NCBI RefSeq assembly: GCF_018128945.1
Contig: NZ_CP068393.1
Coordinates: forward strand, 1,240,001 to 1,304,000
Direction: 5' to 3'
Origin: Aristaeella hokkaidonensis
GTDB taxonomy: Bacteria > Bacillota > Clostridia > Christensenellales > Aristaeellaceae
Length of the DNA stretch: 64,000 nucleotides
Part shown: positions 212 to 25,062 of the stretch, piece by piece
How positions within the stretch are numbered: position 1 is the first letter of the stretch
How the letters are laid out: each line of letters begins with the position of its first letter
Program-made: the position numbers and the translations under genes
The notes under the pieces: model-generated
Databases searched by the model: none
The model's input: the letters and a program-made list of their open reading frames with translations, nothing else
What the model was told of the DNA's origin: nothing

Positions 212-1129
212 TCACGCGCTACACGTCGTGAATCTTTTCTTCGCTTGTTCACACGTTTCCCTTACCTTCTCCAGATATCCTTCCTTCCACACATTCTCCA
301 TATCGTCTGTAATACGCTTCCACGATACAATCTGGCCGTCCGGGCCTATATACCAGCCTAAATATCCTTTTTTGCCTTCATTCTTATAATCTATAACCCT
401 GTATTCTCCTGTACCCTTATACAGATCCACTACGCCTTCAAAGCGCACAACTACACGCATTCCATCGGCATAATACTCTGGAATATACCGAAGTACGGCT
501 TCCACGTATTCCTTTGTGCTCATCTCATTCCCGGCGGCATAGTGCTTCCACATGTCATTATTTCTGACTTCATGACAAATGATCTTCCTGACGCCCAAGT
601 CTGCAAGTACATCCACCGTTTCCCGCAGAACATCCGTATTCCCGCGGTGAATGTTCATCTCAACGCTGGTCGGGAATCCCCTGAGACAGCAGCGGATCAG
701 TGCGTTCCTTGCCGCCTGTTCCGCTCCTTTGATGCCCCGCATCCAGTCATGCTTTTCCACGCCGTCAAAGCCCACGCAGAATTCCGGTTTCATACCGCGC
801 TGTTCAAACTGATCCAGTACGCTGTCCATCAGCAGCCAGCCGTTGGTATAGATCTTGTCGATCTTCATGCCTTTTTCCAGCGCATAGTCCACCAGGCTCC
901 AGAAGTCCTCCCGTACAAACGGTTCCCCTCCGGAAATCTTCAGGCTCCGCACGCCGCATTTTGCCATCCGGTCAATTGCCTGGATCGCTTCCAAATGTGT
1001 CATTTCATCCAGGGCGGAATCCGGCGTATTGACGCAGCAGAACCTGCACCGGAAGTTGCACCTTCCGGTGATCGTCCACAAAACCTGTTCAGTATATCGC
1101 TTGGCAAACGGATCACAGTACTTTTCCAT
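212..1129 (-). CDS. radical SAM enzyme, short, RiPP-associated
   Basis: A 305-aa radical SAM protein. The cluster-binding motif CNFRCRFC (CxxxCxxC) is near residue 24, followed by ISGGEPF, the usual SAM-contacting GGEP segment. Members next to PqqD-like proteins modify ribosomal peptides. The start at 1129 has AAGGAGAACAG directly upstream. The C-terminus (YIGPDGQIVSWKR) resembles the entry to a SPASM domain, but the expected cysteines are missing: the first is replaced by Trp, and only two Cys remain in the last 15 residues. It is therefore either a SPASM-less maturase or a shortened one. It is the last gene of the operon HPrK-like/PqqD/precursor/rSAM, so the upstream Gly-Trp peptide is the likely substrate. 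The chemistry is unknown. Confidence 0.85.
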   Translation of the reverse strand: MEKYCDPFAKRYTEQVLWTITGRCNFRCRFCCVNTPDSALDEMTHLEAIQAIDRMAKCGVRSLKISGGEPFVREDFWSLVDYALEKGMKIDKIYTNGWLLMDSVLDQFEQRGMKPEFCVGFDGVEKHDWMRGIKGAEQAARNALIRCCLRGFPTSVEMNIHRGNTDVLRETVDVLADLGVRKIICHEVRNNDMWKHYAAGNEMSTKEYVEAVLRYIPEYYADGMRVVVRFEGVVDLYKGTGEYRVIDYKNEGKKGYLGWYIGPDGQIVSWKRITDDMENVWKEGYLEKVRETCEQAKKRFTTCSA

Positions 1130-1187
1130 GCTGTTCTCCTTCGTCTTGTCGCGCTGTTCAAAGAAAACTTCTGACTATGCGAGTGAA

Positions 1188-1213
1188 GGGTATCAAAAGA
1201 TGCTTTGATACCC
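1188..1213 (-). other. stem-loop between precursor and radical SAM gene
   Basis: A perfect 10-bp stem (GGGTATCAAA / TTTGATACCC) with a 6-base loop lies between the precursor stop and the radical SAM start. No clear U-run follows, so it may stabilise the precursor mRNA or act as a weak attenuator rather than a full terminator. Such structures behind precursor genes commonly set a high precursor-to-enzyme ratio. Confidence 0.6.
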
Positions 1214-1242
1214 ATACAAAACAAAATGTATTTAGACGATTA

Positions 1243-1437
1243 TCAGAACCACCAGCCACCAAACCAGCCGCCGAACCATCCCCATCCCCATCCATGGGAT
1301 GCTTTTTTCGTATTCTTGGTATTTGTATTGTTATAAGGATTATAACAATTGAATGACTTCTGGTCATAACCGGAGCATGTCAGGATGTCTTCATTCCCCA
1401 GGTTGATAATGGTTACCTTCGCTTTCTCGTACTTCAT
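1243..1437 (-). CDS. putative RiPP precursor with Gly-Trp-Phe core
   Basis: A 64-aa peptide with AAAGGGG upstream of its ATG. The first 20 or so residues (MKYEKAKVTIINLGNEDI...) look like leaders of clostridial radical SAM peptides. A middle Asn/Thr/Lys-rich spacer follows. The last 16 residues, GWGWGWFGGWFGGWWF, contain only Gly, Trp and Phe (six Trp, three Phe). It sits between a PqqD-like gene and a radical SAM gene, which is the standard position for a modified-peptide precursor. Inference: the aromatic tail is the core and Trp/Phe side chains are the sites of crosslinking or another radical modification. Two cysteines (residues 21 and 31) lie before the core. I cannot assign it to a named family. 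Confidence 0.75.
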   Translation of the reverse strand: MKYEKAKVTIINLGNEDILTCSGYDQKSFNCYNPYNNTNTKNTKKASHGWGWGWFGGWFGGWWF

Positions 1438-1454
1438 TTTTGTTCCCCTTTCGA

Positions 1455-1727
1455 TTATTGAATGGTTTCTATTGCGGGAGAGATACTCTCCAGAAATTCG
1501 CCAATGTCCTGCCTGGCGGTAGGCTCATCCAGGTCCACGTAGCGTTCCATGGAAACTGCAATCAGCTTTTCAAAGGTCGTTCCCTTTTCAATCATTCCCC
1601 AGTAGAACGCCCCTGTTTCATTGGTCTGGATAATCTTCCTGAAATGATCCGCGTTCTCCCCGGTGGCTATGATCATGTATTCGTCCAGCATCTTCTGCAT
1701 GACGAACCCATCCCTGGCCCTGATCAT
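1455..1727 (-). CDS. PqqD-like peptide chaperone (RRE)
   Basis: A PqqD-family protein of 90 aa. PqqD folds are RiPP recognition elements that bind the leader and present it to the radical SAM enzyme. The FVMQKMLDEYMIIATGE segment, the central 'N-ETGAFYWGMIEKG' helix and the C-terminal acidic helix fit the family. The start at 1727 is preferred because AGGAGG lies 7 bases upstream; the ATG at 1733 is too close to it. It lies 28 bases after the HPrK-like gene and 17 bases before the precursor, in one transcription unit. Confidence 0.85.
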   Translation of the reverse strand: MIRARDGFVMQKMLDEYMIIATGENADHFRKIIQTNETGAFYWGMIEKGTTFEKLIAVSMERYVDLDEPTARQDIGEFLESISPAIETIQ

Positions 1728-1755
1728 CCGCATTCCTCCTTTTTCCTTTCTTCTG

Positions 1756-2463
1756 TCAAACAACGTATTGTACTTTCTTTTCCTTTTGAATCTGTTCCCA
1801 GAGCTTGTCCGGCTCTTCCTTGTACATATTGCAGGTGTACAGGTAAAACGGCACTTCCCGGATAAAGCGTTCCATCAGGTTCATGAAGACGCCCATGAGC
1901 TTGGGATTGCTGGGCACCAGCACCTGTTTGAAGAGCCGCTGCGAGATCTCCTTCGCGTCCATGCGCCGGAGGGATACTTCCTCGCCCCGCTCCAGGAAAC
2001 ACACCGCTTTCATCGGAACGCTGGTGTTCTCGCCCAGGTGCTCCTTGCCCCGCCAGGGCGTTCCGCAGGCGAAGAGATGGTCATTCACAAACCGGAGAAT
2101 GGGTTTATCCCCGTTTACCACCTGCATCCGCTTGCCGAAGGCTTTCTTCCAGAGCAGGACCCGGGTGGTTTTGCCCGTACCGCTCTCCGCCGTAAACACC
2201 ACGCCTTGTCCGTCGATATTGATCACCGCGGCGTGCATCAGGAAAGCGTTATAGTCCATCATCAGGAGGGCGATCTTCCGGTAGAGGCAGAGCTGCTCAT
2301 TCTCCTCCGGAGTCGGCTGCCCTTCCGCGGCCATTTCCACTTCCGAAGCGGAAACCGTTACCCAGGGTTTCTTACAGCTCAGGTAATCCTTGTAGATCAT
2401 CCTGGTGGATCCGAACCGACTTCTAATCTCGACCGGAATCCCTGCAATTTCGATGGTAAACAT
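1756..2463 (-). CDS. HPr kinase-like P-loop protein, RiPP-associated
   Basis: A 235-aa protein of the HPr kinase/phosphorylase C-terminal-domain type that recurs in RiPP operons. Visible features: MHAAVI near residue 96, a P-loop AESGTGKTT near 112-120, NGDKP about 20 residues later, and a conserved CGTPWRGKE segment. HPrK relatives in lasso-peptide clusters phosphorylate the precursor; whether this one does is unknown. It lacks the N-terminal half of true HPrK, and no HPr gene is adjacent. GGAAGGTG precedes the start. It is the first gene of a four-gene operon with PqqD, precursor and radical SAM genes. Paralogues lie at 10252-10977 and 15573-16304. Confidence 0.85.
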   Translation of the reverse strand: MFTIEIAGIPVEIRSRFGSTRMIYKDYLSCKKPWVTVSASEVEMAAEGQPTPEENEQLCLYRKIALLMMDYNAFLMHAAVINIDGQGVVFTAESGTGKTTRVLLWKKAFGKRMQVVNGDKPILRFVNDHLFACGTPWRGKEHLGENTSVPMKAVCFLERGEEVSLRRMDAKEISQRLFKQVLVPSNPKLMGVFMNLMERFIREVPFYLYTCNMYKEEPDKLWEQIQKEKKVQYVV

Positions 2464-2914: not shown

Positions 2915-3595
2915 TTACATACATATCAAATTGTATTTGTTTTGTATTTTCACTAATGCCGTTAATTTTCCGCCTTTTCCGCAGCCTGTATCAATACAGA
3001 TTGTGCCCTTTTCCGGCAGCGGCCGTTCCTCATTATACGGCAGGACTTCCGTTGTGGCCTCGTCCCCTGCAAACCACGTCGGGTTTTCCAGGGCGATATG
3101 CCCCACGATCGTCAGCGGTCCTTTATAGCAGTTCCTCATCGCGATCCCGTGATCATGGATCAGGGTCTCTGTATCATTCGCTTCAATGGGATCGATCAAG
3201 AGCCCTGCATGCACGCACTGGAAGCCTTCTCCCTTGTAATACATCCTGCAGTGTTCCCGGATCCAGGGAGCCGCCTCTTCCATCTTCTCCCCGTGTGCCT
3301 TGAAGGAAGCGACCGTTGCGCCTTTTCCCACCTTATCCCAGATCATCCGCTCCTTCAGCGTCAGCTTCTCCCTCAGCAGGTAATCCTCATGGTTTCCCCG
3401 CAGGAGCACAAACTGATCTCCATAGGTCCGCTGCAGGCTCTTTACGGTATGGAATACTTCCCAGCTTTCCGGCCCACGGTCAAACAGGTCACCCAGCAGG
3501 ATGACCTGGTCTTCCTTTTCCGGTTTAACTTTATCCAGAAGTGCGCACAGTTCCTTATTGCACCCGTGGATATCGCCGATGATGATGGTTCTCAT
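2915..3595 (-). CDS. PPP-family metallophosphoesterase
   Basis: A 226-aa calcineurin-like phosphatase of the PPP serine/threonine type. Metal-binding motifs appear in order: GDIHG (8-12), GDLFDRG (about 35-41), GNHE (about 66-69), a later VHAG and IVGH. The length matches bacterial PrpA/PrpE-like stand-alone catalytic domains, cytosolic and without membrane segments. Substrate is unknown: protein phosphoserine/threonine or nucleotide tetraphosphate are both possible. It stands alone between the first RiPP operon and the signalling operon, on the same strand. Its stop lies close to GTTACATA elements. A link to the HPrK-like kinases next door is tempting but is only inference. Confidence 0.85.
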   Translation of the reverse strand: MRTIIIGDIHGCNKELCALLDKVKPEKEDQVILLGDLFDRGPESWEVFHTVKSLQRTYGDQFVLLRGNHEDYLLREKLTLKERMIWDKVGKGATVASFKAHGEKMEEAAPWIREHCRMYYKGEGFQCVHAGLLIDPIEANDTETLIHDHGIAMRNCYKGPLTIVGHIALENPTWFAGDEATTEVLPYNEERPLPEKGTICIDTGCGKGGKLTALVKIQNKYNLICM

Positions 3596-10251: not shown

Positions 10252-10977
10252 TCACCCATTGTTTTTGATTTGCTCCCACAGCATTTCCGGCTTTTCCTTC
10301 TCCAGGTTGCCGATATACACATAGAACGGCACCGTCTGCACAAACTTCTCCAGCAGGGAAATCAGCATGCTCATTTCCCTGTTTCCCCTGGGAATAATCA
10401 CCTGCTGCATCAGTCTCAGTGCGGCTTCGTCTTGCGTCATCCTTTCCAGGGAAACCTCTTCTCCGCGCTCAATAAAGCACATAGCTTTCATCGGGACACT
10501 TTCTTTGACACCCAGTTTTTCCAGACCCTTCCAGGGTGTTCCGCAGGCATATACGCCGTCTTCCTTAAGCCGGATGACAGGCTTGGCTCCGTTGATGACC
10601 TTTACCCTGTCTCCCATTGCTTTCTTCCACAGCAGTGCCCTGGTGGTCTTTCCTACGCCGTTTGCGGTTGCAAAGCCCACACCCTGCCCGTCCACGCTGA
10701 TCACCGCTGTCCTCGTCAGGAAAGCGTTATAATTTACCAGTGCGGCAGCAATCTTGCTGTTAATTACCATCTGCTCGGTGCGTTCGGAAATCTCTTCGTC
10801 TTCCATCATCATTTCCTCATCTGAAACCGATACAATCGTCATGGGCAACTGATCCGACAGATAATCCAGGAAAAACTCTTTGGTGGATTCAAACCTGCTG
10901 ATAATCCCAATCGGCACTCCGGCGATTTCGATCACGAACATCTGCTTCTGCAGAACATTCTGCCGGTATGCCGTCAT
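10252..10977 (-). CDS. orphan HPr kinase-like protein with altered active site
   Basis: A paralogue of the protein at 1756-2463 (shared MFxIEIAGxP start, CGTPWKG, FIERGEEVSLxRM and PFYVY segments). Three positions that are identical in the other two copies differ here: the His of HAA is Arg (LTRTAVIS), the P-loop is ANGVGKTT instead of SGTGKTT, and NGDKP is NGAKP. This suggests reduced or lost kinase activity. There is no PqqD, radical SAM gene or peptide next to it. The start is uncertain: the family start is at 10941, neither that ATG nor 10977 has a good ribosome site, and GGAGGG precedes an in-frame ATT near 11019. It may be a regulatory pseudo-kinase or a relic of a third peptide locus. 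Confidence 0.75.
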   Translation of the reverse strand: MTAYRQNVLQKQMFVIEIAGVPIGIISRFESTKEFFLDYLSDQLPMTIVSVSDEEMMMEDEEISERTEQMVINSKIAAALVNYNAFLTRTAVISVDGQGVGFATANGVGKTTRALLWKKAMGDRVKVINGAKPVIRLKEDGVYACGTPWKGLEKLGVKESVPMKAMCFIERGEEVSLERMTQDEAALRLMQQVIIPRGNREMSMLISLLEKFVQTVPFYVYIGNLEKEKPEMLWEQIKNNG

Positions 10978-13246: not shown

Positions 13247-14929
13247 TTATGAATTCTGAACTGCACTTGCTGTCAGTCTACCCTCCTGCAAATGGAATAT
13301 CCGATCACAAATTCCCAGTGCGGCCTTCCTATGCGTCACAATTATCACCGTCTTGTTCCGCATTGCGTCTATATTTCGCAGCACCTGGGCTTCAGTTTCT
13401 TCATCCAGTGCGCTTGTGGCTTCATCCAGCAGCAGTATCGGCGCGTTGCTCAACAGCGCCCTGGCAATCGCCACACGCTGCGCCTGGCCTTCGGAAAGGC
13501 CAATACCGCGTTCACCCAGTTTTGCTTCCATTCCGATCTTCCCAACCAGTTCATCCAAACAGGCTGCCTTCACAGCTTCCTGGATCTCTTCATCAGTTGT
13601 GTGATCGGTAAACATGGTCAGGTTGTCCTTCAGCGTACCGCTCATGAGCATATTACCCTGGGGCACATAGGCAAACAGGTTTCTGGTTCCCTTGCATGCC
13701 GGAACCTTCTTACCGCCGGAAACAAACGACACACTGCCTGCGGTAGGCTTATATATTCCCAATAGCAGCTGGAATAGGCTTGTCTTGCCGCCACCGGAAA
13801 TTCCGGTCAGTGCAACAAAGTCACCCCTCTGTATCGTTCCATCAACGTCCACAAGCACATCCTCTTCGTTTTCTGCATACTGGAAGTGGACGCCCTCCAT
13901 CCGGATTTCATCAAAGTTGTCAAGTTTATCCCCAACCACTTCATCTGGCAGTCCAATTACTTCCTGAAGTCTCTCAGCAGAAGCAACCACACCATATGCC
14001 TCGCTTACCAGGCTGATCGCATTGGCAATCGGTCCCTGAATCCGTCCAACCAACTGAATCAGTGCAGCAAGTCCGCCATATGTAAAAGTACCCTGATAGA
14101 TCTTAACACATCCCCACAGGTTACACACCAGCCAGCTGATATCAAACAAACTACCCATACCGTTGTTCAGGGCAATATTCAACTTTCCATTACGAATCTG
14201 TTCCTTTGCCAGGTGTTCGCGGTGCTCATCCATGTTATCCATTGCCCGTTCTTCACTGACAGAAGCTTTAATCAACCTTACATTCTCTATGGTTTCCTGT
14301 GTGCTGGCATGCAGTTTTGCCTGGGCATCCTGCATCCGCTTATGGCGCCGTTTCATGGGATTTCGGAAAGCAGCAGTTAATATGACACCCAAGAATCCCG
14401 CGATAATCAGAACCGGAATAAACCGCCAGTCCATGCTGATGAGGATGCCCGCAGCACCCACAAAAGAAACTATAATACGCAGAACAGATGGTAATAAATT
14501 CAGCACGCCATCTTTTACAACGCTCACATCACTGAAGACGCGGCTTACCAGTTCACCACTGTGAAAAGGTTTCAGTGCTGGATATTCTTTGTCCATCAGG
14601 CTGGCTGTTACCTGATGTTGCATTTCAAGCTGCATCCTTGCAGAAGTCCTAGTCCGCAGCCAGGATCCAAGCACTGAAATCAACCGTTCTACAGCAATGA
14701 TCATAACTAACAGAACGCCATATTTCCAGAGCAAACTGCTGTCATGGCTTACTGCTCCATCAATCAGTTCCTTTGTCACCAAAGTCAGCCAAAGGGATAA
14801 CAAGGTGCCTAGGATTCCCAACAAAGAAATCCCCAAGATTGCTCCACGAAACGGCCTTGCCCACCGATGAATAGACTTGTAGACCGGACTGCGAAATACA
14901 GTCTTAACTCTTTGCAAATTGCTTTCCAT
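13247..14929 (-). CDS. ABC exporter (fused permease and ATPase)
   Basis: A 560-aa half-transporter of the peptide/lipid exporter type. Six hydrophobic segments fill the first 310 residues. The ATPase has Walker A GISGGGKTS, signature LSEGQAQR, Walker B LLLDEATSALDEE and an H-loop THRK. There is no C39 peptidase domain at the N-terminus, consistent with leader removal by the separate S26-type peptidase encoded upstream. The start at 14929 is preferred: ACAGGAGAAAC precedes this ATG, while the upstream TTG at 14953 lacks a site. It is the last gene of the second RiPP operon, followed by a terminator. Prediction: exports the matured peptide. Confidence 0.92.
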   Translation of the reverse strand: MESNLQRVKTVFRSPVYKSIHRWARPFRGAILGISLLGILGTLLSLWLTLVTKELIDGAVSHDSSLLWKYGVLLVMIIAVERLISVLGSWLRTRTSARMQLEMQHQVTASLMDKEYPALKPFHSGELVSRVFSDVSVVKDGVLNLLPSVLRIIVSFVGAAGILISMDWRFIPVLIIAGFLGVILTAAFRNPMKRRHKRMQDAQAKLHASTQETIENVRLIKASVSEERAMDNMDEHREHLAKEQIRNGKLNIALNNGMGSLFDISWLVCNLWGCVKIYQGTFTYGGLAALIQLVGRIQGPIANAISLVSEAYGVVASAERLQEVIGLPDEVVGDKLDNFDEIRMEGVHFQYAENEEDVLVDVDGTIQRGDFVALTGISGGGKTSLFQLLLGIYKPTAGSVSFVSGGKKVPACKGTRNLFAYVPQGNMLMSGTLKDNLTMFTDHTTDEEIQEAVKAACLDELVGKIGMEAKLGERGIGLSEGQAQRVAIARALLSNAPILLLDEATSALDEETEAQVLRNIDAMRNKTVIIVTHRKAALGICDRIFHLQEGRLTASAVQNS

Positions 14930-15052
14930 GTTTCTCCTGTATCTATAATTCAACTAAATCATATATAAATTATACTACAGCGTTCAATATATTGTCATCG
15001 AGTCTTTCAATCTATACAGCAAAAAAGAGTGTTCAACATCCAGCAATAGCCA

Positions 15053-15529
15053 TTATCCGAACACTCTTCTTTTCACTGCGCTCCAATACCTATAAACAAA
15101 AGACTTCGTTTTTAGCAGGAAAACTCGAACCGGATAGAAATCACACCAGAGATGAACATAAACCTTATACCAGATATTATCTGGGGTTATACTCTTGCCG
15201 TCCCGGATGACCCGTGTCATGACACCTAGAATCATATCATCCATAACAGGTGGATCCAGGAAGGTGTTATGATCTCCAGCTACTACATATCGATCTGGAA
15301 GTACCTTCAGAACGCGATGTAAAATATATCGATCATCAATTTTATATAGAACAACATCATATTTTTTTATCTGCTTATCTAGCTTATGTATTACTATAAT
15401 ATCTTTATGCTGTCGAAGAAGAGGCATCATTGAATAACCAACACTTGTATAGACTATATACCCTTGTTCTTGTAATAATCTATCAAAAGTCAAATATTGA
15501 ATTGATGGCTCAGTATATCTATCCGGCAC
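15053..15529 (-). CDS. S24/S26-type signal peptidase-like protease
   Basis: A 158-aa protein of the signal peptidase I/LexA-like fold. The catalytic Ser lies in YTSVGYSMMPLL (GxSMxP, about residue 33) and the likely general-base Lys in YDVVLYKIDDRYILHR. GDH and ILGVM segments complete the core. It lacks an obvious N-terminal membrane anchor but has a hydrophobic C-terminal stretch. The start codon is GTG with AGAGGA upstream. In peptide loci, such proteins are candidates for removing leaders. The gene lies between the HPrK-like gene and the ABC exporter, which supports that role. Confidence 0.85.
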   Translation of the reverse strand: MPDRYTEPSIQYLTFDRLLQEQGYIVYTSVGYSMMPLLRQHKDIIVIHKLDKQIKKYDVVLYKIDDRYILHRVLKVLPDRYVVAGDHNTFLDPPVMDDMILGVMTRVIRDGKSITPDNIWYKVYVHLWCDFYPVRVFLLKTKSFVYRYWSAVKRRVFG

Positions 15530-15572
15530 TTTTTATTATTCCTCTATTCCGAATGTGATGCTTATTATACTA

Positions 15573-16304
15573 CTATTTTTTTATTCCATTACCAAGAGCA
15601 TCATATGCAACTTGGAAACAATCATCCTGGAAATTGTCAATTTTAAACTCATAAAAAGAGACTTTCCCTTGTAAAGACTGTATCATTTGAAGTGTTTTTC
15701 TGACTTTCTCAATTGGCTCTGGTCTGTATGCTTGTTGATAAAGATATGGAAACGCTTCTATAAACGAAATCTCTCGAATTGAATTTCGCTCCGCTCTCTC
15801 CAAAAACACAACGGCATTTAAGGGTACTATAGTATTTGTATTATAACCTTCCTTTCCAGCCCACGGAGACCCACAAATATAAGGGACTTCACCGGTAAGG
15901 ATAAATGGCTTATCTCCGTTCACCACTACAGTCTCCGGTTTGTTTTTACGCCAAAGATTTATATGCGTCGTTTTACCCGTTCCACTACTGGCAGAAAAAA
16001 TATATCCTTTTCCACTCAAAGCTATAGCTGCTCCATGATATAAAAGCACGCCTTCATCTATGAATCTATCTGCAAGTAATCTTAATAAAGTATATTCTTC
16101 GGCTAAGCCATCCCATGCATCACATTTTCCATGGTTAGCTGTTTCACACACTTTTTTATCTTTGTCTATTTCTGATTGTGTAGATACAATTTTAAAATCT
16201 GCTACTCCATCAGTAGTATAACCACGGCATATAGCTTGCGGACGGGTGTGTAGAGTCTCAACATCAATTATTCGACCGGCAATTTTAATCTTAAAGTTGT
16301 ACAT
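15573..16304 (-). CDS. HPr kinase-like P-loop protein, second RiPP locus
   Basis: Paralogue of the protein at 1756-2463, 243 aa from the ATG at 16304 (MYNFKIKIAG aligns with MFTIEIAG). A TTG 24 bases further upstream, overlapping the PqqD stop, is a less likely start. Active-site elements are intact: YHGAAI, P-loop ASSGTGKTT, NGDKP and CGSPWAGKE. The family is known from lasso-peptide and radical-SAM peptide operons, where some members phosphorylate the precursor. It lies between PqqD and the S26-type peptidase. Target residue and effect are unknown. Confidence 0.85.
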   Translation of the reverse strand: MYNFKIKIAGRIIDVETLHTRPQAICRGYTTDGVADFKIVSTQSEIDKDKKVCETANHGKCDAWDGLAEEYTLLRLLADRFIDEGVLLYHGAAIALSGKGYIFSASSGTGKTTHINLWRKNKPETVVVNGDKPFILTGEVPYICGSPWAGKEGYNTNTIVPLNAVVFLERAERNSIREISFIEAFPYLYQQAYRPEPIEKVRKTLQMIQSLQGKVSFYEFKIDNFQDDCFQVAYDALGNGIKK

Positions 16305-16317
16305 AATTGTATTATGA

Positions 16318-16584
16318 TTATTCCTCAATAAGATTGTTACTTCTCAAAAGTTCCACAATATCTCGAACATATTCAGCTATAGTATCTTCATTATTATCGT
16401 ATTTTGATGTCAATTGGGATATAATCTCCTCTATTGTTGTATCTTTTTCAAGAATTTGAATTATTTCCAGCCCAGTTTTGTTCAGTTTCAATACACCATG
16501 TACCTGATCAGCGCCGTTTCCCACAGGTACCGCAATAACTTCTGATCCCATATCAACCGCTTCGAAAGCGCATTTCATCTTCAT
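16318..16584 (-). CDS. PqqD-like peptide chaperone (RRE), second locus
   Basis: An 88-aa PqqD-family protein. The segment VDMGSEVIAVPVGNGADQVHG matches the beta-strand region, the segment around 'LNKTGLEIIQ' matches the conserved N-x-T/G-x2-I region, and the C-terminal helix contains DIVELLRSNNLI. The start has TTGGAGGATTATAACG upstream. It presumably binds the leader of the 58-aa peptide upstream and delivers it to the SPASM radical SAM enzyme. The gene follows a strong stem-loop that separates it from the peptide genes. Confidence 0.85.
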   Translation of the reverse strand: MKMKCAFEAVDMGSEVIAVPVGNGADQVHGVLKLNKTGLEIIQILEKDTTIEEIISQLTSKYDNNEDTIAEYVRDIVELLRSNNLIEE

Positions 16585-16605
16585 CGTTATAATCCTCCAA
16601 TGTAT

Positions 16606-16646
16606 AAAAGGGGCATGCGTGGTATTTTTCCAAACATGCCCCTTTT
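16606..16646 (-). terminator. intra-operon stem-loop after peptide genes
   Basis: A 12-bp perfect stem, AAAAGGGGCATG / CATGCCCCTTTT, with a 17-base loop. It is followed by only a short U-run (TTTTATAC). It lies between the small-peptide genes and PqqD, so it probably acts as an attenuator or 3' stabiliser giving more peptide than enzyme mRNA. Confidence 0.7.
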
Positions 16647-16671
16647 GTTATGCCCGGTGGGGTTCAACACA

Positions 16672-16908
16672 TTACAGCCAGCCCTTAGCCTTTAAGGCAT
16701 TCACACAAGCCTGGTCATACTCTTCAGTGGTGTTGTACTTCCCGATCAGCGCATCCATGACATCCATAGCCTGATTAGCAGTGCAATTCTTCAGCTGAAA
16801 AGCGACACCCTTGATGGTGGTGAAAGCCAGCTTCAGGTTGTTCTTATTGATATAATAATTTCCACCGTTAACCATATCCAGTTCGTTTTCATTAATTTCC
16901 ATTTTCAT
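16672..16908 (-). CDS. small peptide with double-glycine leader motif
   Basis: A 78-aa peptide with GAGGAAGAACA upstream of its ATG. Residues 5-16, NENELDMVNGG, form a classic double-glycine (bacteriocin-type) leader, which C39 peptidase transporters cleave after GG. The remaining 62 residues are predicted helical, with two Cys and no Trp until the end (KGWL). It is co-transcribed with a radical SAM precursor and lies just before the stem-loop. Options: a second precursor, a peptide secreted by the C39-type exporter at 51468-53648 (no C39 protein is in this operon), or an accessory/immunity peptide. I do not recognise the family. Confidence 0.65.
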   Translation of the reverse strand: MKMEINENELDMVNGGNYYINKNNLKLAFTTIKGVAFQLKNCTANQAMDVMDALIGKYNTTEEYDQACVNALKAKGWL

Positions 16909-16925
16909 TGTTCTTCCTCCTCAAA

Positions 16926-17102
16926 TTACACAATAAGCGGAGAGGTGTCATCGCAACCTACTCCTGTTGAATGTTCAGCGTTACCAACACAAGAAGTTCC
17001 GCCCTGATTTGAGATACCATCCGCAATACAGCCAGAATCCGTGGTAAGCTTTTCATTCAAATCAATTGAAACAAATTCAGCCTTCGGTTCTTCAAAATAC
17101 AT
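16926..17102 (-). CDS. radical SAM RiPP precursor, Cys-containing
   Basis: A 58-aa peptide. The start at 17102 is chosen because AAGGAGG lies 9 bases upstream; the ATG at 17111 abuts that site. The leader MYFEEPKAEFVSIDLNEKL resembles clostridial radical SAM peptide leaders and also the leader of the 1243-1437 peptide. The core is Gly/Ser/Thr-rich with three Cys (SGCIAD, TSCVGN, VGCDD). The gene overlaps the 3' end of the SPASM radical SAM gene, so the pair is translationally coupled. Candidate chemistry includes thioether (sactipeptide or ranthipeptide) bonds at Cys, based on the enzyme class; this is inference. Confidence 0.78.
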   Translation of the reverse strand: MYFEEPKAEFVSIDLNEKLTTDSGCIADGISNQGGTSCVGNAEHSTGVGCDDTSPLIV

Positions 17103-18474
17103 TACAATCATCCTCCTTTTTATTACTCAGGTTTTTACCTGAGGAAAACAAACTTATTATCGTATCTGTATATTTGCGATACGATTCAGGAAGGAATAAA
17201 CAACGATCTTTAGCAGGACACTTTTCTATTCTGTAACAATCCGGGAAAAATGTGCAATCCCTGCATTTGGGGTGATCCGCACTTATTTTCCAGGCTCCTG
17301 CGCGGTTTTCATCTGTTATTCCTTCAGTTACCGTTCCCGTGGTTTCTGTATCATCAAAACGTTCACAGCATCTGACTAATGAGCCATCTGGTGTGATCGT
17401 AACGGTGGAATCATTCTCTGCATCACAGCAATGATACCGAAAATGGGGCAATTGCTTCACCGAATGATATAACCCAGCTTCCCGGGACATATTATTCAAT
17501 TCCACAATTTTGTCTATGAACCATTCTTCACTCCCATGAAGTACATTACCTTCTTTGTCAGCATATTCCCCAATAACCGGGAATGCATACACAGACAAGT
17601 TCGGATTGTCTCCAAATCGGAGTTTTGCCTCTTTTACAAGTCCACCGAAATCCTGATAATTTGCCTTATCAAAATTCATTCGCATTCCGACTCGAATGCC
17701 ACTATCTAGTAGCAATCCGATATTTCTGAGAATACGCTGATAAGGATTATCACGCACATTTACAAAACTCTTTGTTGCATTATGCCTCTCTTCCAGCCCA
17801 TCGAAGCATATCTGTAGGTATTCCAGATTCCATTTTTCCTTTGCCTTCTGAACAAGTCCTTCATCAAACAGATATCCATTCGTTACCATTTGTGAAAGAT
17901 ACTTTATTCCACGAAGCCTCAATCCCTCTGTAATCTGGTCAATTCTATCAGAAGCAACTGTAGGTTCACCACCAAACCACGTGATACGGACAAATTTCTT
18001 TTCTCCACAATGTGACGCAATAAACTCGACAACTGAATCGGCAATTTCTTTCGACATCTTTGTCGTTTTTGCTCCTTGCTCGAAACAGTAATAGCATCTA
18101 GCGTTACATGCAGTAGTCGGTAGGATGGTATATTTCGTAATGTCTTTTGAAACCTGAGCTTCTTCCAACTTACGGAATATGCATCTCATATTCACAACCT
18201 GCTGATGCTCATCATATGATTCAGGGACCAGAAAATGATTATCAACAAGTTGCTCCATTCCTGGTATATACTTGACAGGAAGACTATTGATGATATCAAC
18301 CTCTTCTCCTTCAAGTACTGCGAGCTGGCTTGTGATGACATTGTATAGCAACACATTGCCCTCATGATCGACCCGCATAACATACCGCATCAGCCGGTAG
18401 GTGTCCGTATGCTTGATCTGTTGTTTCCCCCAGAGTTTTGCAATTTTTTCTTCAGGTTCCACAATCGTCCTCAC
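17092..18474 (-). CDS. SPASM-domain radical SAM peptide maturase
   Basis: A 460-aa peptide-modifying radical SAM enzyme. An N-terminal region of about 100 residues, possibly leader-binding, precedes the cluster motif TTACNARCYYCFEQG (CxxxCxxC) and TWFGGEP. The C-terminal SPASM region has many Cys (VRCCERFDD, HPKCRDCTFFPDCYRIEKC, KDRC) for two auxiliary iron-sulfur clusters. It is the first gene of the operon, behind a TTGACA-N17-TAATAT promoter, and overlaps the start of its likely substrate, the 58-aa Cys peptide. Enzymes of this kind install thioether or carbon crosslinks in precursors. It acts in the cytosol together with the PqqD protein. Confidence 0.92.
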   Translation of the reverse strand: MRTIVEPEEKIAKLWGKQQIKHTDTYRLMRYVMRVDHEGNVLLYNVITSQLAVLEGEEVDIINSLPVKYIPGMEQLVDNHFLVPESYDEHQQVVNMRCIFRKLEEAQVSKDITKYTILPTTACNARCYYCFEQGAKTTKMSKEIADSVVEFIASHCGEKKFVRITWFGGEPTVASDRIDQITEGLRLRGIKYLSQMVTNGYLFDEGLVQKAKEKWNLEYLQICFDGLEERHNATKSFVNVRDNPYQRILRNIGLLLDSGIRVGMRMNFDKANYQDFGGLVKEAKLRFGDNPNLSVYAFPVIGEYADKEGNVLHGSEEWFIDKIVELNNMSREAGLYHSVKQLPHFRYHCCDAENDSTVTITPDGSLVRCCERFDDTETTGTVTEGITDENRAGAWKISADHPKCRDCTFFPDCYRIEKCPAKDRCLFLPESYRKYTDTIISLFSSGKNLSNKKEDDCNVF

Positions 18475-23901: not shown

Positions 23902-25062
23902 CTATTGCTTTCCTTTCTTATCCCTATTGACGCCTAATTTATTAAACATATTGTACTTTGTTTTTGCTATTTGATATTCATTCAACAATCGTCTCACAGG
24001 TTTCTTTCTTCTAATTCCTTTGTAAAAATATCGAAGCATCTGATAAACCCAAGCAAACGATTGAAGATGTTTCTTTCCCATACCAACTTTCCAGTTTATG
24101 AGTCCCCGCTTTTGAAATAGTCGAAACGCTTCCTTTGGCGAAAATGTAGCAAGAATAACATTCTCCCCAACACTTGTATTCTCTGCTTGCTTATTTCCAA
24201 AGTTCCCGCTTTTTTTTATATGATTCATCAGTTGATTACATAGTTCTTCATCTGCCATCTTACACCATTCATGTTCAGATAATCCTAAATACATTTCAGC
24301 CATTCGAGTCACAATTATTGCCAATTTGTCCAATCCAATACAATTTGCCTTTTTTTGAAACAAACTCCACTTACTAGTATCATCAAGGCATTTATCCACA
24401 AAAAAAATCCAATCAATAATCTGTCGTAAGCCCAGTCCTGTTCGTAAATGCTGTCGAATATGTTCAAGCAATACCAAACCGTTAATCAGGTCTGGCAAAA
24501 TATGTGTGTCAGCAATAATATTAGAAACAATCAAATTGTCTAGATAATTGGATGTGTCCAGATCATTCATAGCAGCGAAAAACTGATGAACCTCCACATG
24601 GATTCCATTCTTATAGAATTCTCTATGCCGTTTATTCTTTTCATCTGTATTACTACCTATTTCCATGTATCCCTTTTTAATAAGCATACAACACGCTGTC
24701 TCATAATCCTCCCGTCTTGTCATAATATCAATATCACCCATTACTCGAAGTTCAGGAAAAGGATAATATTTTGCTGCTGAAGTCCCCTTTAATATAACAT
24801 ATGGTACTGTAATAGGAAGTTGATTTTGTTCATATCTATATTTTATATTATAGTTCATTTGTTGCAAAATATATTTTTTCCATATGTTACGTAAATCATC
24901 TGGCATTTCAAGTCTGGAAAGGATTGGAGCAGCTAATAAAGCAATAGTATGCATGCGTAATTCTTTATATGTATTATATGATACCACTCCCGTATTCGTT
25001 CTCCAAATGCAGCATCTTATAATTTCTAACTCATCATAACTCTCCATTATTGCATCATTCAT
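23902..25062 (-). CDS. nucleotidyltransferase-fold protein (NTP_transf_5 type)
   Basis: A 386-aa protein with the nucleotidyltransferase signature VILKGTSAAKYYPFPELRVMGDIDI (a GT/S..RxxGDxDxxv pattern near residues 108-132). This places it in the uncharacterised nucleotidyltransferase family known as NTP_transf_5. The remainder is helical, with FDKCLDD-type and HLRTGLGLRQIIDW segments. Such proteins are found in surface-polysaccharide loci and also near RiPP genes with PqqD and HPrK-like proteins. The substrate is unknown. Soluble, cytosolic. It precedes the repeat/VanZ gene by 38 bases in the same direction. Confidence 0.8.
   Translation of the reverse strand: MNDAIMESYDELEIIRCCIWRTNTGVVSYNTYKELRMHTIALLAAPILSRLEMPDDLRNIWKKYILQQMNYNIKYRYEQNQLPITVPYVILKGTSAAKYYPFPELRVMGDIDIMTRREDYETACCMLIKKGYMEIGSNTDEKNKRHREFYKNGIHVEVHQFFAAMNDLDTSNYLDNLIVSNIIADTHILPDLINGLVLLEHIRQHLRTGLGLRQIIDWIFFVDKCLDDTSKWSLFQKKANCIGLDKLAIIVTRMAEMYLGLSEHEWCKMADEELCNQLMNHIKKSGNFGNKQAENTSVGENVILATFSPKEAFRLFQKRGLINWKVGMGKKHLQSFAWVYQMLRYFYKGIRRKKPVRRLLNEYQIAKTKYNMFNKLGVNRDKKGKQ

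What the first reader, a model, noticed from the sequence alone, without database searches (positions are those of the whole stretch)
212..2463. Compact radical-SAM peptide operon with a Gly/Trp/Phe-only core
Four genes: HPrK-like kinase, PqqD-like protein, a 64-aa peptide and a radical SAM enzyme. The last 16 residues of the peptide are only Gly, Trp and Phe (six Trp). I know of no described family with this tail; it suggests aromatic crosslinks (cyclophane-like) or another Trp modification. No exporter or protease is encoded next to it.
Basis: partly seen in the sequence, partly recalled or inferred. Interest (0 to 1): 0.75.

Follow-up and report, generated by a model that had tools for sequence, protein, structure and literature searches.

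The report
Trp/Gly-tailed peptide with pared-down maturase
A Clostridia bacterium carries a tiny gene set that appears to make and chemically alter a small peptide ending only in glycine, tryptophan and phenylalanine, using a radical enzyme that has lost the two accessory domains its relatives have, so its chemistry may be unusual.

Summary
In detail: four minus-strand genes (HPrK-like kinase, PqqD-type RRE, 64-aa precursor, radical SAM enzyme) at 212-2463; the last 16 peptide residues are only G, W, F (six W). It looks like a real RiPP system: a same-genus genome has the same operon with conserved enzymes and another aromatic/Gly-rich core, and 24 of 31 leader-family peptides are Trp-rich. 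(1) Kinase and RRE, together with a signal-peptidase-I-like gene, an MsbA-like exporter and an NTP_transf_5 gene 11-21 kb away, resemble the 'linear polyphosphorylated peptide' (LPP) gene set of 2026, though two defining LPP features are not met. (2) The radical SAM enzyme is reduced: most relatives (461-513 aa) carry an N-terminal RRE-like domain, and those aligned an 8-Cys SPASM domain; here both are deleted, in a well-supported clade that includes an intermediate with the N-terminal domain. Seventeen candidate precursors at SPASM-type loci all have Cys-containing cores with at most two Trp. Crosslinking is untested; loss of all auxiliary-cluster Cys argues against known cyclophane chemistry, and epimerisation or another one-cluster reaction is at least as likely. 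New variant of a known kind.

The parts
1756..2463 (-). HPrK-like kinase (LppK-like by position and motifs): MHAAVI, SGTGKTT, NGDKP all present
   Evidence: 98.7% aa identity to the G023 copy, dN/dS 0.14
1455..1763 (-). PqqD-type discrete RRE; real start probably ATG at 1733 or 1727 (by eye)
   Evidence: PF05402 E 3e-10; only PDB match at E up to 10 is TbiB1, E 0.047; lasso_PqqD NCBIfam matches far below cut-off
1243..1437 (-). precursor peptide, 64 aa
1378..1437 (-). predicted leader, residues 1-20 (Y3xxA6xV8 ... D17-I-L-T20); T20-C21-S22 in 29 of 31 family members
   Evidence: cleavage after T20 and phosphorylation of S22 are inferred by analogy with LPP
1246..1293 (-). C-terminal 16 residues, only Gly/Trp/Phe
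1188..1213 (-). 11-bp hairpin between the peptide and enzyme genes; different hairpins lie in the same place in G023
   Evidence: z -4.5 (window), -5.1 (G023)
212..1129 (-). compact radical SAM enzyme, 305 aa: CNFRCRFC and GGEP motifs kept, no N-terminal RRE-like domain, SPASM core deleted, C-terminal helix kept
15053..15529 (-). signal peptidase I-like protein, candidate leader peptidase in trans; its only match in this genome at E up to 0.001 is itself
   Evidence: TIGR02228 E 4e-8, below its cut-off
13247..14953 (-). MsbA-like ABC exporter without a peptidase domain, candidate exporter in trans
   Evidence: best NCBIfam MsbA_rel, below cut-off; homologue upstream of the phosphatase and SPASM-less enzyme genes in G001
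23902..25062 (-). NTP_transf_5 nucleotidyltransferase beside polysaccharide genes; possible counterpart of the LPP 'NTP transferase'
   Evidence: PF14907 E 1e-29; that LppN is of the same Pfam family was not tested

Best explanation
A RiPP operon with an LPP-like kinase/RRE module and an added, pared-down radical SAM maturase. Proposed working: the discrete PqqD protein binds the leader at Y3xxA6xV8 and presents the precursor; the HPrK-like kinase phosphorylates the conserved Ser22; the compact radical SAM enzyme, probably holding only the SAM-binding cluster, abstracts hydrogens in the Gly/Trp/Phe tail; a signal-peptidase-I-like protein encoded in the same island removes the leader after Thr20 and the MsbA-like exporter secretes the product, a basic linker with an aromatic tail. 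Shown by sequence: gene content, conservation, the domain deletions and their likely order, co-variation of core type with enzyme type. Inferred: leader binding, phosphorylation, cleavage and export (by analogy with LPP). Guessed: the tail chemistry. My split: C-alpha chemistry such as L-to-D epimerisation of aromatic residues about 0.35, aromatic C-C or C-O crosslinks about 0.3, thioether from Cys21 or another reaction about 0.35.
For: Same operon in G023 with the kinase, RRE and enzyme at 92-99% aa identity and dN/dS 0.07-0.14, while the core differs but is again aromatic/Gly-rich. 24 of 31 leader-family peptides have 4 or more Trp after residue 22, against 0 of 17 (at most 2) candidate precursors beside SPASM-bearing relatives. 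TCS in 29 of 31 against 0 of 17. Compact plus N-domain-only enzymes form one clade (100/100) nested among full-length enzymes. All eight C-terminal Cys invariant in 15 of 15 full-length enzymes are missing from the window enzyme, while the end of the protein and its Cys293 are kept, in 19 of 19 aligned rows that reach there. 15 of 18 HPrK-linked SPASM loci have the signal-peptidase-like gene within 3 kb and 17 of 18 a PqqD gene. LPP biochemistry: PMC13381572, sections read. One-cluster epimerases with a critical Cys: PMC8326336, passages.
Against: No product or activity is known. Leaders carry YxxA (26) or FxxA, never YxxP (0 of 31), though LPP complex formation drops when that Pro is changed (passage); the Ser is at +2 after Thr, not +3. 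Peptidase and exporter are not in the operon and adjoin another RiPP-like cluster; L040 and L041 of the same genus also lack the peptidase nearby. Only 2 of 45 genomes of the genus have the compact enzyme. G001 has the SPASM-less enzyme without a findable precursor. Some compact relatives align one or two Cys with old SPASM positions (P0032-P0034, P0039). Cys293 is also in the nearest full-length enzymes, so it is no special mark of the compact form. EpeE, another epimerase, does have a second cluster. The N-terminal domain of full-length relatives is called RRE-like only from its modelled fold pattern; Pfam names nothing there.
Confidence: 0.6

Rival explanations
1. Cyclophane or ether maker: the compact enzyme crosslinks aromatic residues of the tail (net -2 Da per link), like triceptide, streptide or darobactin enzymes, sending the spare electron elsewhere.
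For: Tail rich in Trp and Phe with short spacings, kept in most homologues; known radical SAM crosslinks involve Trp (darobactin, start of the abstract of PMC9055067).
Against: No SPASM domain and none of the eight auxiliary-cluster Cys; review passages call such clusters essential for the modification in the C-C cyclases (PMC8326336). Gly next to aromatic residues offers no C-beta for a three-residue cyclophane (general knowledge).
Confidence: 0.3
2. Thioether or other chemistry at the leader-proximal end: the enzyme acts on Cys21 beside Ser22, and the Trp/Gly tail is unmodified, perhaps membrane-active, sequence.
For: TCS in 29 of 31 and in 0 of 17 SPASM-type candidate precursors; SPASM-type candidates have Cys-containing cores; best solved-structure match is SkfB, a sactisynthase.
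Against: In sactisynthases an auxiliary cluster is proposed to bind the Cys, though another mechanism is proposed too (PMC8326336); these clusters are lost here. No Cys beyond the leader end in 6 of 31 (table).
Confidence: 0.12
3. Decaying system: enzyme domains, peptidase and exporter were lost because the pathway is degenerating, and the tail is a drifting simple repeat.
For: Loss of two domains and of adjacent genes; a kinase paralogue with its catalytic H and D replaced nearby; GGATGG three times in a row in the DNA; some family members look truncated or frameshifted (P0012, P0014, P0017, P0020).
Against: dN/dS 0.07-0.14 for kinase, RRE and enzyme; ten compact relatives at 64-92% identity have open frames; tails differ in sequence but mostly keep their composition.
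Confidence: 0.12

Closest known systems
Linear polyphosphorylated peptides (LPP; Popov et al. 2026, PMC13381572)
   Same: HPrK-like kinase, discrete RRE, and in the same island a signal-peptidase-I-like gene, an MsbA-like exporter and an NTP transferase beside polysaccharide genes; leader with an aromatic-xx-small-x-hydrophobic motif and a conserved Thr and Ser at its end
   Different: Adds a radical SAM enzyme (term absent from the LPP paper's main text); A instead of P in the leader motif; Ser at +2; peptidase and exporter not in the operon; Clostridia (the LPP sections read work on Bacilli)
SynChlorMet cassette (NCBIfam ScmC/ScmE/ScmF)
   Same: A cassette with radical SAM enzymes whose ScmC model weakly matches the kinase; that ScmC is HPrK-like and a PqqD-like ScmD exists is recalled, not from a call
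   Different: All matches far below the curated cut-offs (ScmC 20.8 of 125, ScmE 66.5 of 400 bits)
Sactisynthase SkfB and other SPASM/twitch RiPP maturases
   Same: SkfB is the best sequence and fold match among solved structures
   Different: No RRE domain, no SPASM Cys, and an aromatic/Gly-rich core
Proteusin epimerases (PoyD type)
   Same: Only the radical SAM cluster (here inferred), and a conserved Cys towards the C-terminus (PMC8326336 passages)
   Different: No PoyD-type model among the 25 of 68 NCBIfam matches shown; different leader; direct comparison with PoyD not made

Membership tests
LPP | HPrK-like kinase with catalytic motifs | tested here: met
   motifs; homology to LppK itself not tested
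LPP | discrete RRE next to the precursor | tested here: met
LPP | signal-peptidase-I-like leader peptidase in the cluster | tested here: not met
   not in the operon; one homologue 12.6 kb away in the same island
LPP | leader motif YxxPxVLxHQxIxFETxxS | tested here: not met
   YxxP in 0 of 31, YxxA in 26 of 31; only a loose form is met
LPP | polyphosphorylation of the core Ser | not testable with these tools
   needs mass spectrometry
SPASM RiPP maturases (sacti-, ranthi-, streptide, triceptide type) | SPASM auxiliary-cluster Cys | tested here: not met
   none of eight in the window enzyme
Radical SAM superfamily | CxxxCxxC and GGEP with the radical SAM barrel | tested here: met
SynChlorMet | ScmC/ScmE/ScmF models at curated cut-off | tested here: not met
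Lasso peptides (paeninodin-like) | macrolactam synthetase and leader peptidase B2 beside the precursor | tested here: not met
   Pfam of the larger neighbours on both sides shows neither; other ORFs up to 24 kb judged by eye only
PoyD-type epimerases | epimerised residues; catalytic Cys | tested here: inconclusive
   Cys293 kept in 19 of 19 rows, but also in full-length relatives; activity not testable here

The most novel reading that the evidence does not exclude
A ribosomally made analogue of gramicidin-like peptides (likeness recalled, not tested): a one-cluster radical SAM enzyme, derived by domain loss from a SPASM maturase of Cys-containing peptides, turns Trp/Phe residues of a Gly-alternating tail into D-residues (or links them), giving a Trp-lined membrane-inserting tail on a phosphorylated, basic stem.
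Probability: 0.14. Interest if true: 0.88.

Novelty: new variant of a known kind. Interest (0 to 1): 0.67.

Why it matters
It offers a natural experiment on what auxiliary clusters are for: one enzyme lineage lost its SPASM core and, it seems later, its N-terminal domain, and the substrate appears to have changed from Cys-containing to Trp/Gly-rich. Comparing full-length, intermediate and compact enzymes could show whether single-cluster enzymes can crosslink peptides or do other chemistry. It also links radical SAM peptide chemistry to a newly described phosphorylation module, in gut Clostridia including Faecalibacterium and candidate Blautia species.

Tried and rejected
Named-genome scan with the enzyme alone found nothing; with alignment A3 it found 32 loci. 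Viral contigs gave no relatives of enzyme or peptide. The metallophosphatase at 2915-3595 looked like a kinase partner, but it matches in 13 of 45 genus genomes, of which 10 are neither the window's own, G023 nor G001, so I do not count it as a part. SynChlorMet and lasso membership rejected on cut-offs and gene content. Shared longest-contig length (2712) of P0018 and P0033 suggests they lie together, but the contig was not fetched, so it is not used. The Trp comparison (Mann-Whitney p 2e-6) ignores kinship, and the leader family was found with a profile made of the first ten peptides, mostly Trp-rich, so it is partly circular; two members found by leader (P0023, and P0029 at E only 0.18) are Cys-containing and Trp-free. 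The 17 SPASM-type precursors come from 15 of 18 loci and were picked with a loose motif plus eye; I dropped three motif hits without such a leader (L067 1676, L073 5942, L091 5517). L039 was left out as the same locus as L068. P0062 (64% identity, 308 aa) is a fragment that keeps the N-terminal domain and ends before the SPASM region, so it says nothing on SPASM; it was left out of the Cys293 count. The matches L059, L061 and L062 were not resolved. Structure models are of middling confidence (mean pLDDT 78 and 76).

Full report
What is there. On the minus strand at 2463-212 lie four closely packed genes: an HPrK-like kinase (235 aa), a PqqD-type RRE, a 64-aa peptide and a 305-aa radical SAM enzyme. 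PqqD and radical SAM pass Pfam cut-offs; the kinase does not, but has the H, P-loop and D motifs of its relatives. No Pfam or NCBIfam model fits the peptide. A hairpin separates peptide and enzyme genes in the window, and others do so in G023. Downstream lie an AAA ATPase, two proteins without a Pfam match and a SpoIIE-type sensor; upstream a phosphatase, a solute-binding protein and signalling proteins.

Is it more than chance. In 150 genomes searched with the peptide, the own genome and G023 of the same genus matched. The G023 locus has the same four genes (L006 6994-9242). The DNA is 95% identical over 8.1 kb up to within the peptide gene, just past the leader; then the core region does not align; then the enzyme gene aligns at 89.5%. 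dN/dS is 0.14, 0.07 and 0.13 for kinase, PqqD and enzyme. The G023 peptide ends SFWGGFWGWFHW. Protein searches gave 29 peptides, P0029 only at E 0.18. With the window and G023 ones these make 31: 29 have TCS at the leader's end, 24 have at least four Trp after residue 22, and only the window peptide and P0001 end in 16 residues of W, F and G alone. The seven with fewer Trp are P0006, four that look truncated or frameshifted (P0012, P0014, P0017, P0020) and the Trp-free P0023 and P0029. In 300 genomes of the family the peptide profile matched 6 at E up to 0.01: the two known; L060, a locus of the SPASM type; and three that I did not resolve. In 45 genomes of the genus, 13 have an enzyme match at E up to 1e-60; two of these (own, G023) have the compact length, G001 has a SPASM-less form with the N-terminal domain, the rest have frames of 471 aa or more.

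The enzyme. A search of 5.8 billion proteins gave 136 hits, 120 listed. P0030 to P0037 and P0039 (64-91% identity) are 272-311 aa. P0038 (388 aa) differs from the G001 form by one residue over its length. Of the other 110, 103 are 461-513 aa; the seven outside are P0062, P0068, P0073, P0109, P0113, P0143 and P0147, 308-437 aa. The full-length forms that I aligned have about 80-90 extra residues in front (strands and helices like an RRE in the model of P0040; no Pfam match there) and a SPASM region with eight Cys invariant in 15 of 15. In the window enzyme the stretch between a beta hairpin and the final helix is gone, with all eight Cys, while the last 25 or so residues align with the end of the full-length form. 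Some compact relatives align one or two Cys there. In the tree, 11 compact and 2 N-domain-only rows form one clade at 100/100 inside full-length enzymes; the compact group itself has only 87/62 support, the bootstrap had not fully settled and the root is a midpoint. The simplest order is loss of the SPASM core first, then of the N-terminal domain. The model of the window enzyme keeps the alternating strands and helices of the radical SAM core and a C-terminal helix; the best solved match is SkfB by sequence and by fold. Cys293 is kept in 19 of 19 rows that reach it, full-length ones included.

The SPASM-type class. One search scanned 48 loci. With window, L006 and L063 set apart, 18 of 45 have an HPrK-like gene near a full-length enzyme: 17 of 18 have a PqqD gene and 15 of 18 a signal-peptidase-I-like gene within 3 kb. 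The other 27 show no kinase in the stretch held, some because contigs end. Named hosts include Faecalibacterium, candidate Blautia species and Pseudoflavonifractor. Seventeen candidate precursors from 15 of these 18 loci have at most two Trp, and at least two Cys after residue 24. They were picked by a loose motif near the enzyme, so some may be wrong. 16 of 17 carry a loose aromatic-xx-small-x-hydrophobic leader motif, YxxP in 2.

The LPP link. Popov et al. 2026 (PMC13381572; [quoted passage not shown] the kinase phosphorylates a Ser three residues after the cleaved Thr. The window holds the operon's kinase and RRE and, in the same island, a signal-peptidase-like gene (15053-15529, the only match in the genome), an MsbA-like exporter (13247-14953) and an NTP_transf_5 gene (23902-25062) next to polysaccharide genes. 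G023 and G001 have homologues of peptidase and exporter in the corresponding island. In the window these genes adjoin another radical SAM RiPP-like cluster (15-18.5 kb), so their use by this operon is inference. The leader lacks the LPP Pro and the full LPP motif. The LPP paper's main text has no hit for radical SAM or Clostridia.

Chemistry. The passages seen in PMC8326336 say auxiliary clusters are essential for the modification in the C-C cyclases discussed, and that proteusin epimerases hold only the radical SAM cluster and need a Cys, while the epimerase EpeE has two clusters. The compact enzyme therefore fits a one-cluster reaction better than a SPASM-type crosslink, but nothing here shows what it does.

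Print. Searches of the paper library for combinations of PqqD, HPr kinase, radical SAM and RiPP, for Trp- and Gly-rich cyclophane precursors, for HprK with signal peptidase, and for SPASM-less RiPP enzymes listed no paper whose title or abstract start describes this combination; I judged listings, not full texts, and most subscription journals are not in that library.

Distances, the length ranges of relatives and several attributions were corrected, the downstream flank was examined, and I lowered confidence from 0.62 to 0.6 and interest from 0.68 to 0.67 because two defining LPP features are not met and the precursor set is partly circular.

Noticed in passing
window 10252-10977 (-): Second HPrK-like protein, 51% identical to the operon's kinase, with the catalytic His replaced by Arg and the Asp of NGDKP by Ala; 98% identical copies in G001 and G023, so a conserved, probably inactive kinase.
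   Followed up: partly
window 15053-18474 (-): A second radical SAM RiPP-like cluster: signal-peptidase-like, HPrK-like, PqqD, a 78-aa and a 61-aa small protein, and a 460-aa radical SAM enzyme nearest to TIGR04463 (below cut-off). G023 and G001 have counterparts with different small proteins.
   Followed up: partly
window 2915-3595 (-): Calcineurin-like phosphatase beside the operon in the window and G023, and beside the SPASM-less enzyme in G001, but also matched in ten other genus genomes (13 of 45 in all).
   Followed up: yes
L092 55-2479: Contiguous HPrK-like (354 aa), radical SAM (368 aa) and PqqD (86 aa) genes in a cattle-cecum Oscillospiraceae genome, only distantly related (27% identity).
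   Followed up: no
L006 8093-8261 against window 1192-1369: The peptide core and the gap after it are the only unalignable stretch between two highly similar flanks, as if cores are swapped as cassettes.
   Followed up: partly
P0022, P0024-P0028: A subgroup with a Trp-rich block soon after the leader and a shared tail ending in FGHW, unlike the window's C-terminal block.
   Followed up: no
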